DNA of 64,000 nucleotides, from the NCBI GenBank assembly GCA_000828835.1, contig AP014633.1:930001-994000 (forward strand). Reading direction: 5' to 3'. Each line of letters begins with the position of its first letter. The stretch's first letter is position 1. Below, piece by piece: positions 29,245 through 31,855 of this stretch. Below the pieces are notes generated by a model that was not told the DNA's origin, searched no databases, and worked only from the letters and a program-made list of their open reading frames with translations. A program made the translations under genes and the position numbers. Source of the stretch: Thioploca ingrica (lineage in GTDB: Bacteria; Pseudomonadota; Gammaproteobacteria; Beggiatoales; Beggiatoaceae).

Positions 29245-30561
29245 ATGGAAATATTAGCTATCCTCAGTGGAGGTATTGTTGTTGCTTTAATTGGCATCTG
29301 GTTTAGAAATCTTTGGCACAAACATAAGCAATTACATCACACTCTCGAAAAAACTCAGCAAGAATTACAAACAACTGTTGGACAATGTCGCCTAGAACAA
29401 GAAAAATGTCAACAACTGGATCACACTTTTCAACAAGAACAAGCGCGCGTTCAACAACTCGAATTAGTTTGTCAAGCTGAGCAAAACCGCCGACAACAAC
29501 TAGAACAGTCGCTAGATTCCGCCCAGCGCGATTTAACGGCACATTCTGAACAATATCGTTTAGAACAAGCACGTAGTCAACAATTAGAACATTCACTCGA
29601 ACAAGTGAAACAGGAATTAAATCGGGCTACCGAGCAATTTTATTCAGCACAAGCACAACAACAACAACTGGAACAGGATTTACAAGCTGAGCGCCTACAA
29701 CGTCAGCAAGTCACCCAAGAACTTGAAAAAGTTAAGCAAGAATTCAGTACAACCCATGAACAATTCCAAGCACTCCAAACGCAGCAACAGCAATTAGAAC
29801 AAGCTTTACACGCAGAGCAAATGCAACAGCGGCAATTGCAACAAGTTCTTGAACAAGTTAAACAAGACTTAACGACAACGGCTGAACAATTGCAATTAAC
29901 TCAGCAACAGCGGCAACAACTTGAACAAGCTTGGCAAACCGAGCAAATTCAGCGGCAACAACTCGAACAATCCCTAGCAGAAACCAATCTCCAATTAGCC
30001 ACGATACAACAACAATTATCCCAGCAAATCACGGTTGCTGAAAATAAAGGTAAAGTCGCCTTCTTTAAAATTGTGGCTAAACATAGTGGTAAAATACTGG
30101 ATGTTGAAGGCAGTCGTCAAGGCAACGGTGCTTATTTTTTGCAACAGGGTAGTGTTGATAGCGACAGTCAGAAGTTTTTATTTTGTGCAGTTGACGATTC
30201 CTATTGGATGGTGATACCTAAACATAGCGGCAAAGTTTTAGATATTTCTGGTTATCCTAAAAAAGAGGGAATCTATTGTCAGCAAGCGAGTTACCGAGAT
30301 ACGGATAACCAAAAATTGAAATTGCAGGAAATAGAAGCGGGTTATTGGTGTTTTGAAGTAAAATCGAGTGGTAAAGTATTAGCTATCAGTCAAGCTAGCC
30401 AAGAAGACGGTGCTCGCCTTATCCAACAAGTGATTGAAAATACCGATAACGAGAAATTTAAGTTAGAAAAGGTAGAAGAGATCGAAATTGCTGCCTTGCC
30501 CTATAAAGTTTACCGTACCTTACAACAGCGCGGGAATATTGTCTTAAAAACGCTAGAATAG
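29245..30561 (+). CDS. membrane-anchored coiled-coil protein with ricin-type beta-trefoil
   Basis: A 438-residue protein of three parts. Residues 4-20 form one membrane helix (LAILSGGIVVALIGIWF). Residues about 26-262 are a Gln/Glu-rich coiled coil with internal repeats of the type QQLEQ...QAEQ. Residues about 270-410 form a ricin-like trefoil of three units, each with an H/S-SGK-[IV]L-[DA]-I/V segment (KHSGKILDVEG, KHSGKVLDISG, KSSGKVLAISQ) followed by a degenerate QxW position (SQKF, NQKL, NEKF). A 28-residue tail follows. Ricin-type domains usually bind glycans; with a short N-terminus and one helix, the topology (trefoil outside or inside) is not settled. It lies 53 nt upstream of the actin-like gene, which hints at a shared function. 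Confidence 0.82.
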   Translation: MEILAILSGGIVVALIGIWFRNLWHKHKQLHHTLEKTQQELQTTVGQCRLEQEKCQQLDHTFQQEQARVQQLELVCQAEQNRRQQLEQSLDSAQRDLTAHSEQYRLEQARSQQLEHSLEQVKQELNRATEQFYSAQAQQQQLEQDLQAERLQRQQVTQELEKVKQEFSTTHEQFQALQTQQQQLEQALHAEQMQQRQLQQVLEQVKQDLTTTAEQLQLTQQQRQQLEQAWQTEQIQRQQLEQSLAETNLQLATIQQQLSQQITVAENKGKVAFFKIVAKHSGKILDVEGSRQGNGAYFLQQGSVDSDSQKFLFCAVDDSYWMVIPKHSGKVLDISGYPKKEGIYCQQASYRDTDNQKLKLQEIEAGYWCFEVKSSGKVLAISQASQEDGARLIQQVIENTDNEKFKLEKVEEIEIAALPYKVYRTLQQRGNIVLKTLE

Positions 30562-30614
30562 CAAAATGATCTTACTCATTCTGATTATTGACTTGAAGGG
30601 AATTCAATTAACTC

Positions 30615-31592
30615 ATGTTTAACTTAAAATTACAAAGAAAAATCCAACTTGCTATTGATATTGGTAACCGATTGCTGAAATCCTGTACAGCGAATGGCGC
30701 CGTTAAATCGCTACCCTCTTGGCATAAAGATCTCGAAGAGTGGGATACGCCTTTAGCTGATCAGAATTCAGTCATTATTAACTACTTACAAGGAAGTAAT
30801 CCGAGCCTCGTTAAACATACTTGGGCAGTTGGGTTGGTTGCGCAAGATTTTGGTGGTAGTCCAACTTTTGAAGCCGAAAAAGCTTTTTTAGCACCCAAAT
30901 TAGTTTTAGCGATGATCGATGGTGGTGGGGTATCCCAAATCACTTTGGAACGGTTGGTCTGTGCCTTACCTAACGAATTGCAACAAGACAAAGTCGAAGC
31001 GATTGTGAAAGGATTGACCGGTGTTCACCACATTAAACGCAATAATGAAGAATTGAAAATAGAAATCCAAAAAATAGAAGTTCAGCCAGAAACGTTAGGT
31101 GCTTTTAAATGGATGTTAAGTCAGAAATTATTTCAATATGCTCGGATTAATGGCATTTTAGATTTAGGAGGTAAAACCGGAATTGGACAATTATATACCA
31201 AAAATGGTTCATTAATTCGTGAATCCAGAATTATCGTGGGTGGAACCTACCAACTGGCTCAACTCGTTGCCCAACATCCCAAACTGATTCGTCAAGACAC
31301 CACGCCGCAACTCAGCTTAATCATGGATGCGATAGCCAATCAATCGCTCGCTTATGGGAATACTGGAATTAGTTTTGCGGATGAATTTCCCAACTATGTG
31401 GCACAATGGTTAGAAGAGATTCGTAATAAACTTAAAATCAGTTGGGCCAAATGGTTATCGGAACTCGGCGAAGTAGTTATTGTAGGCGGTTCTGCTGCGT
31501 TGGCAAAACCATTGGTAGAACAAACGGCTGGACGATTCAAAGTAGCCAAAGATCATCCACAATTTTGTAATGTGATGGGAATGTTACTATGA
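30615..31592 (+). CDS. ParM-like actin-family ATPase
   Basis: A 325-residue member of the actin/Hsp70/hexokinase ATPase superfamily, closest in look to the ParM/StbA plasmid-segregation actins. Phosphate-1 motif: AIDIGNRLLKS (13-23). Phosphate-2 motif: GILDLGGKTGIGQL (180-193). Adenosine motif: EVVIVGGSAALAKPL (286-300). Such proteins form dynamic filaments that push or position DNA or other cargo. Its stop overlaps the next start (ATGA), as in parM-parR pairs. No replication gene is near, so the window gives no sign of a plasmid, and a chromosomal cargo other than plasmid DNA is possible. Confidence 0.82.
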   Translation: MFNLKLQRKIQLAIDIGNRLLKSCTANGAVKSLPSWHKDLEEWDTPLADQNSVIINYLQGSNPSLVKHTWAVGLVAQDFGGSPTFEAEKAFLAPKLVLAMIDGGGVSQITLERLVCALPNELQQDKVEAIVKGLTGVHHIKRNNEELKIEIQKIEVQPETLGAFKWMLSQKLFQYARINGILDLGGKTGIGQLYTKNGSLIRESRIIVGGTYQLAQLVAQHPKLIRQDTTPQLSLIMDAIANQSLAYGNTGISFADEFPNYVAQWLEEIRNKLKISWAKWLSELGEVVIVGGSAALAKPLVEQTAGRFKVAKDHPQFCNVMGMLL

Positions 31593-31855
31593 GCGAAACC
31601 ACAGCAGAACTTTCTCTTACTCTCAACGGCAAAGACACCATAGCGATGGTAAACCAATTATGTGCCACCACTGGGATGACACCACCTTGTTTAGTGGCGT
31701 TAATGGTGAGAAGATACGGTCAAGATTTAGTCTCATGGATAGGTCATTCGCCCACTTTGCTAGCCAATTCAACAGAAACTCCCACCGATACTCCCAAACC
31801 GATCATAGAACTACCCACTGACCCAGGAGAACATTTATTACCGGTTGAACTCTAA
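31589..31855 (+). CDS. small ParR-like adaptor candidate
   Basis: An 88-residue protein overlapping the actin gene by 4 nt. Residues about 7-50 read as a beta strand (ELSLTL) and two helices joined by a turn (VNQLCATTGMTPPCLVALMV), compatible with a ribbon-helix-helix fold. Residues 55-88 are Pro/Thr/Glu rich and probably disordered. ParR proteins have this plan: an RHH DNA-binding part and a flexible C-terminal tail that contacts ParM. The assignment rests on position and layout, not on clear sequence identity. Confidence 0.6.
   Translation: MSETTAELSLTLNGKDTIAMVNQLCATTGMTPPCLVALMVRRYGQDLVSWIGHSPTLLANSTETPTDTPKPIIELPTDPGEHLLPVEL

What the first reader, a model, noticed from the sequence alone, without database searches (positions are those of the whole stretch)
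29245..31855. Possible new cytomotive cassette: coiled-coil/ricin membrane protein, ParM-like actin, ParR-like protein
Three adjacent co-oriented genes encode a membrane protein with a long Gln-rich coiled coil and a three-unit trefoil, an actin-like ATPase with all nucleotide motifs, and a small protein overlapping it by ATGA with a likely RHH fold and flexible tail. Plasmid par loci have the last two plus a DNA centromere. Here no iterons are visible in the 53-nt gap, and the extra partner is a membrane-tethered lectin-like protein. The actin may position or move a membrane or envelope cargo, perhaps for filament gliding or polarity.
Basis: partly seen in the sequence, partly recalled or inferred. 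Interest (0 to 1): 0.8.

Follow-up and report, generated by a model that had tools for sequence, protein, structure and literature searches.

The report
Plasmid-type actin pair on Thioploca chromosome

Summary
The three ORFs are real and correctly placed. The conserved unit is two genes: a ParM-type actin (30615-31592) and a small ribbon-helix-helix-like protein with a conserved C-terminal tail (31589-31855, ATGA overlap). The pair lies on chromosomes of two Thioploca species, two other Thiotrichaceae and at least three cyanobacteria (66-78% actin identity outside Thioploca), in unrelated contexts without plasmid genes. Its nearest outgroups are cyanobacterial plasmid parMR pairs (35-43%) with the same two-gene order. 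In Thioploca the actin is under purifying selection as strong as the neighbouring transketolase (dN/dS 0.05 against 0.04). The coiled-coil/ricin gene occurs beside the actin only in Thioploca, and look-alikes occur in relatives lacking the actin, so the 'three-gene cassette' is not supported. Best reading: a plasmid partition pair domesticated on chromosomes, transferred from cyanobacteria to Thiotrichaceae, independent of the cyanobacterial shape system FcmBC. Filament capping by the tail is inferred. The cargo is unknown: a cytoskeletal or positioning role like FcmBC/CorMR is slightly favoured over DNA segregation. Missing iterons prove little, since close plasmid relatives lack obvious ones too. 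Interest moderate: a new variant of a known kind.

The parts
30615..31592 (+). ParM-type actin-like ATPase, 325 aa, core of the system
   Evidence: ALP_N above cut-off; ParM PRK13917 E 2e-10; pSK41 ParM and CorM top fold matches; clade of 7 chromosomal homologues, support 100/98; dN/dS 0.05 between Thioploca species
31589..31855 (+). ParR-like small protein, 88 aa: RHH-like core (about 1-52), disordered linker, conserved C-terminal tail IELPTDPGEHLLPVEL
   Evidence: Downstream of the actin in the chromosomal loci with intact downstream sequence, ATGA overlap in Thioploca, G028, Prochloron, Paraprochloron and Calothrix plasmids; alignment and model; RHH hits weak
31805..31852 (+). codons of the conserved C-terminal tail (last 16 residues), presumed actin-binding motif
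   Evidence: Tail [LI]x[LF]PxD[PL]GxxLx[PA][IV]x[LF] conserved in 8 homologues across two phyla; binding inferred from ParR of R1 (PDB 4a62, named)
29245..30561 (+). Membrane-anchored Gln-rich coiled coil plus ricin-type trefoil; Thioploca-specific neighbour, probably not part of the conserved unit
   Evidence: RicinB_lectin_2 E 4e-18; beside the actin only in G000 and G001; same architecture without actin in other family members

Best explanation
A chromosomally domesticated ParMR-type cytomotive pair. The actin should bind and hydrolyse ATP and form filaments. The small protein should dimerise through its ribbon-helix-helix core and grip filament ends with its conserved C-terminal tail, linking the filament to a cargo or surface. 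The pair descends from cyanobacterial plasmid parMR, became fixed on a chromosome, and moved between Cyanobacteria and Thiotrichaceae. On the chromosome it most likely serves a cellular role, such as cell shape or positioning of an internal structure, by analogy with FcmBC/CorMR. Shown here: homology, fold prediction, gene order, chromosomal setting, purifying selection, phylogeny. Inferred: polymerisation, tail-actin contact, loss or change of the DNA cargo, the cellular role.
For: Seven chromosomal actins form one clade (100/98; 91/92 with more plasmid rows). Cyanobacterial plasmid ParM pairs with the same order are the next relatives. Neighbours are ordinary chromosomal genes, differing between lineages: tkt/gapdh in Thioploca, dnaK/dnaJ- and murG-like genes in a complete 3.84-Mb Paraprochloron chromosome, tldD- and recF-like genes in Prochloron, a symporter in G007/G028. 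dN/dS 0.051 for the actin, 0.107 for the small protein, 0.041 for tkt. Tail motif conserved across phyla. The plasmid partners' strand carries an Arg (Q-x-R-[IV]-V-L); three of four Thiotrichaceae proteins and UBA8803 lack it, Thioploca reading ELSLTL with net negative charge. Precedent: plasmid-derived chromosomal FcmBC controls cell shape (PMC12645912); purified chromosomal ParMs polymerise (PMC12270681).
Against: Prochloron and Paraprochloron partners keep a basic strand (KKKQ[VI]TL) and may bind DNA; G028 keeps an Arg. Missing iterons do not separate the groups, because Calothrix and Allocoleopsis plasmid loci show none either. No filament, ATPase, localisation or knock-out data exist. RHH matches are individually insignificant. 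The clade is rare: 4 of 43 genomes of the order, 1 of 369 sampled genomes of the class (the window's own), 3 to 4 cyanobacterial genomes.
Confidence: 0.5

Rival explanations
1. It is still a DNA segregation system, now acting on the chromosome or on an unseen replicon: the small protein binds a centromere-like site and the actin pushes copies apart.
For: Nearest relatives are plasmid partition pairs; RHH-like core; basic strand in Prochloron and Paraprochloron; 23-bp tandem repeats upstream of the UBA8803 gene.
Against: No repeats beside the window, G007 or G028 genes; acidic, Arg-less strand in Thioploca; no plasmid genes nearby. Absence of iterons is weak evidence because close plasmid relatives lack obvious ones too.
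Confidence: 0.3
2. A true three-gene device in Thioploca: the membrane coiled-coil/ricin protein anchors the actin filaments or is their cargo.
For: Same strand, 53-nt gap and no predicted + strand terminator between the genes; arrangement kept in two Thioploca species; basic residues after the TM suggest a cytoplasmic coiled coil (inference).
Against: Not beside the actin elsewhere; similar proteins live without the actin in the same family; the ricin protein evolves faster (78% vs 96%, dN/dS 0.17 vs 0.05).
Confidence: 0.12
3. A remnant or selfish passenger of an integrated plasmid with no function for the host.
For: A related pair on the G413 cyanobacterial chromosome lies among plasmid-like genes; a decayed actin fragment in G450 shows loss happens.
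Against: Strong purifying selection; stand-alone pair beside core genes in several lineages.
Confidence: 0.06

Closest known systems
Plasmid ParMR pairs of cyanobacteria (e.g. Calothrix pCAL6303.03, WP_015201132/WP_015201131)
   Same: Two-gene order, ATGA overlap, actin fold and motifs, small protein with strand-helix-helix core, linker and tail
   Different: 35-43% actin identity; on plasmids with plasmid genes; Arg in the strand; different tail ending in a short ..GL/SF
FcmBC / CorMR chromosomal systems of heterocyst-forming cyanobacteria
   Same: Plasmid-derived actin plus small partner on the chromosome, RHH-like region and invariant C-terminal tail; CorM is the second-best fold match
   Different: Our actin scores 21 bits against the FcmB model with cut-off 300 and is far from FcmB in the tree; the partner is shorter and lacks FcmC's MFQWSKK start and coiled-coil-like middle; present in cyanobacteria without an FcmB match (Prochloron, Paraprochloron, UBA8803). 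That CorMR and FcmBC are the same system in two genera is my inference.
pSK41 ParM (PDB 3js6)
   Same: Best sequence-profile (E 9e-13) and fold match (TM 0.71)
   Different: 16% identity in the fold alignment; Staphylococcus plasmid
Chromosomal cParMR of Desulfitobacterium and Clostridium (PMC12270681)
   Same: Chromosomal parM with neighbouring parR-like gene
   Different: Other ParM lineages, in Firmicutes
Bbp, 'big bacteria protein' actin of giant bacteria (PMC10580974)
   Same: Extra actin in large-celled bacteria including Thioploca, spread by horizontal transfer
   Different: MamK/MreB-like by that paper's tree; ours is ParM-like and gives no MreB_Mbl hit

Membership tests
ParMR (type II partition) pair | ParM-type actin fold and nucleotide motifs | tested here: met
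ParMR (type II partition) pair | Adjacent small RHH adaptor with actin-binding C-terminus | tested here: inconclusive
   Adjacent gene and conserved tail met; RHH only weakly supported; binding not tested
ParMR (type II partition) pair | parC centromere repeats beside the genes | tested here: inconclusive
   None at the window locus, but the same scan finds none at several plasmid loci either
ParMR (type II partition) pair | Carried by, and segregating, a plasmid | tested here: not met
   4.81-Mb single contig, core-gene neighbours; Paraprochloron copy on a complete chromosome; segregation itself not testable
FcmB (NF052678) | Score above the curated cut-off of 300 bits | tested here: not met
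   21 bits; separate in the tree
FcmBC / CorMR | Membrane-bound filaments controlling cell shape | not testable with these tools
   Needs imaging and mutants
Bbp | MamK/MreB-type actin | tested here: not met
   No MreB_Mbl hit for the actin; fold closest to ParM and CorM
Three-gene cassette with ricin protein | Ricin gene conserved next to the actin in relatives | tested here: not met
   Only in the two Thioploca genomes; absent beside the actin in G007, G028, UBA8803, Prochloron, Paraprochloron

The most novel reading that the evidence does not exclude
A second, independent conversion of a plasmid ParMR machine into a cellular cytoskeleton, separate from FcmBC/CorMR, shared through horizontal transfer by cyanobacteria and giant filamentous sulfur bacteria. 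The adaptor in Thiotrichaceae has exchanged DNA for another cargo, and in Thioploca it has perhaps gained a membrane-anchored coiled-coil/trefoil partner.
Probability: 0.35. Interest if true: 0.72.

Novelty: new variant of a known kind. Interest (0 to 1): 0.48.

Why it matters
If the pair acts as a cytoskeleton, plasmid sorting machines have been turned into cell-organising actins more than once, and the finished module can pass between phyla. It offers a clean comparison set (plasmid, chromosomal cyanobacterial and chromosomal sulfur-bacterial versions) to ask when an adaptor stops binding DNA, and a candidate for internal organisation of giant filamentous bacteria.

Tried and rejected
(1) Three-gene cassette: rejected as a conserved unit. 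(2) Iterons as a discriminator: plasmid loci such as Calothrix and Allocoleopsis also show none, so the test is uninformative. (3) Membership in FcmB or Bbp: scores and tree say no. (4) Phage origin: no match among 50,697 phage records; two distant hits in viral contigs at 36% and 26%. (5) PF06406 StbA_N search of the genome returned nothing and its control rang nowhere, so no conclusion was drawn. (6) Membrane anchoring by the short MFN/MFF actin N-terminus: hydrophobic moment inconsistent across species, left as speculation. (7) The Anabaena CorMR paper was not found in the library, so that system is known here only through PDB 9rmi and my recollection.

Full report
What is there. The window is bases 930001-994000 of a 4.81-Mb single-contig genome. 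Its same-genus neighbour G001 corresponds to the record 'Thioploca sp. SL_4_0', so the organism is a Thioploca, probably T. ingrica (my inference). The three ORFs, the 53-nt gap and the ATGA overlap are as reported. The flanks are chromosomal: ftsE/ftsX-like genes, gapdh and transketolase upstream, an Rpn-family transposase/nuclease and metabolic genes downstream (gene names other than the Rpn gene are my reading of the translations).

The actin. It passes Pfam's ALP_N cut-off, and its best NCBIfam model is plasmid segregation ParM, below that model's cut-off. An alignment of 14 relatives keeps the nucleotide-binding motifs. The AlphaFold2 model (pLDDT 90, pTM 0.85) is closest to pSK41 ParM, then to CorM of Anabaena and other ParMs, ahead of MreB and MamK. 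A profile search of PDB sequences gives the same order: 3js6 (E 9e-13), CorM (2e-5), then AlfA and ParM.

The small protein. It lies directly downstream of the actin in every chromosomal locus of the clade whose downstream sequence is available. In UBA8803 the actin sits at a contig end and the small gene at the edge of another contig. Its plan is a short strand region, two helices, a linker of very variable length, and a conserved 15-16-residue tail. That is the plan of ParR-type adaptors (established knowledge). Direct RHH evidence is weak but consistent.

Relatives. Of 43 genomes of the order, four have an intact gene, two Thioploca and two of one other genus; a fifth has a decayed fragment. 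A sample of 369 genomes across the class gave only the window's own. Elsewhere the closest homologues are cyanobacterial: UBA8803 70%, Prochloron 68%, Paraprochloron 66%, and a partial Coleofasciculus copy. The next ring is cyanobacterial plasmid ParM at 35-43% and a 25-kb contig (G246, 53%) that carries plasmid-like genes and already shows the DPGxGL tail. No phage record matched.

Phylogeny. The seven chromosomal proteins form one clade (100/98), split into a Thiotrichaceae half (99/94) and a cyanobacterial half (98/85). With more plasmid rows the clade holds at 91/92. All outgroups but one metagenomic viral-collection contig are cyanobacterial, so transfer from cyanobacteria into Thiotrichaceae is the simplest direction (inference). 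Gene sharing between giant sulfur oxidisers and cyanobacteria has been reported repeatedly (PMC6390638). FcmB proteins lie far away, and Prochloron, Paraprochloron and UBA8803 have no FcmB match, so this is a separate lineage.

Selection and setting. Between the two Thioploca species dN/dS is 0.051 for the actin, 0.107 for the small protein, 0.168 for the ricin gene and 0.041 for transketolase next door. The pair sits beside different chromosomal genes in each lineage. A two-gene unit that keeps nothing but itself across phyla is probably self-sufficient (inference).

The ricin gene. It is a membrane-anchored Gln-rich coiled coil ending in a three-unit trefoil. It neighbours the actin only in Thioploca, and is 78% identical between the two species where the actin is 96%. 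Proteins of the same plan occur in G012 and G030, which lack the actin. It may be co-transcribed and may have been recruited in Thioploca, but it does not define the system.

Mechanism. ATP-driven filaments held at an end by the adaptor tail follow from the family (inference). What the adaptor's core holds is open. Plasmid adaptors have an Arg in the strand that would contact DNA; both Thioploca, G007 and UBA8803 have lost it, while G028 keeps one and the Prochloron group has a lysine cluster. I therefore lean to a changed cargo in Thiotrichaceae, with DNA segregation a serious rival. Iterons do not decide this, because close plasmid relatives lack obvious ones too. Precedents for non-plasmid roles are FcmBC, where fcmB and fcmC are needed for rod shape and FcmB forms membrane-bound filaments (PMC12645912), and chromosomal ParMs that polymerise in vitro (PMC12270681).

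Verdict. Observation confirmed; cassette idea not supported; the interesting part is the domesticated, phylum-hopping actin/adaptor pair.

Noticed in passing
L084 (G450:C435:6339-6524): Decayed fragment of the same actin family (83 aa, 54% identity, frame with stops) in an 8.4-Mb genome of another genus of the family, suggesting past presence and loss.
   Followed up: partly
L007:2838-2929: Four tandem copies of a 23-bp unit (CCTGCGGCTATGCTCAGGGTAAA) upstream of the actin gene in cyanobacterium UBA8803; could be a centromere-like array or an ordinary cyanobacterial repeat.
   Followed up: no
window:30615-31592, residue 187: The phosphate-2 loop reads DLGGKTG in the chromosomal clade and G246, against D[LI]GGGT in plasmid relatives: a clade-specific Gly/Lys difference (alignment).
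   Followed up: no
window:30615-30650: Thiotrichaceae actins begin MFN/MFFK and lack the roughly 20-residue N-terminal extension of the cyanobacterial ones; possible change in localisation.
   Followed up: partly
window:31895-32737: Rpn-family PD-(D/E)XK transposase/nuclease directly downstream; absent at this place in the sister Thioploca genome (L005).
   Followed up: partly
L069, L072 (G012, G030): A family of TM plus Gln-rich coiled coil plus ricin-trefoil proteins in Thiotrichaceae, function unknown, found without the actin.
   Followed up: partly
L085:4947-6169: A parMR-like pair (36% actin identity) with the small gene overlapping, on a 70-kb IMG/VR 'viral' contig that may be a plasmid.
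   Followed up: partly
G874: One cyanobacterial genome carries four high-scoring members of this ParM family on four contigs, suggesting several coexisting plasmids with related partition systems.
   Followed up: no
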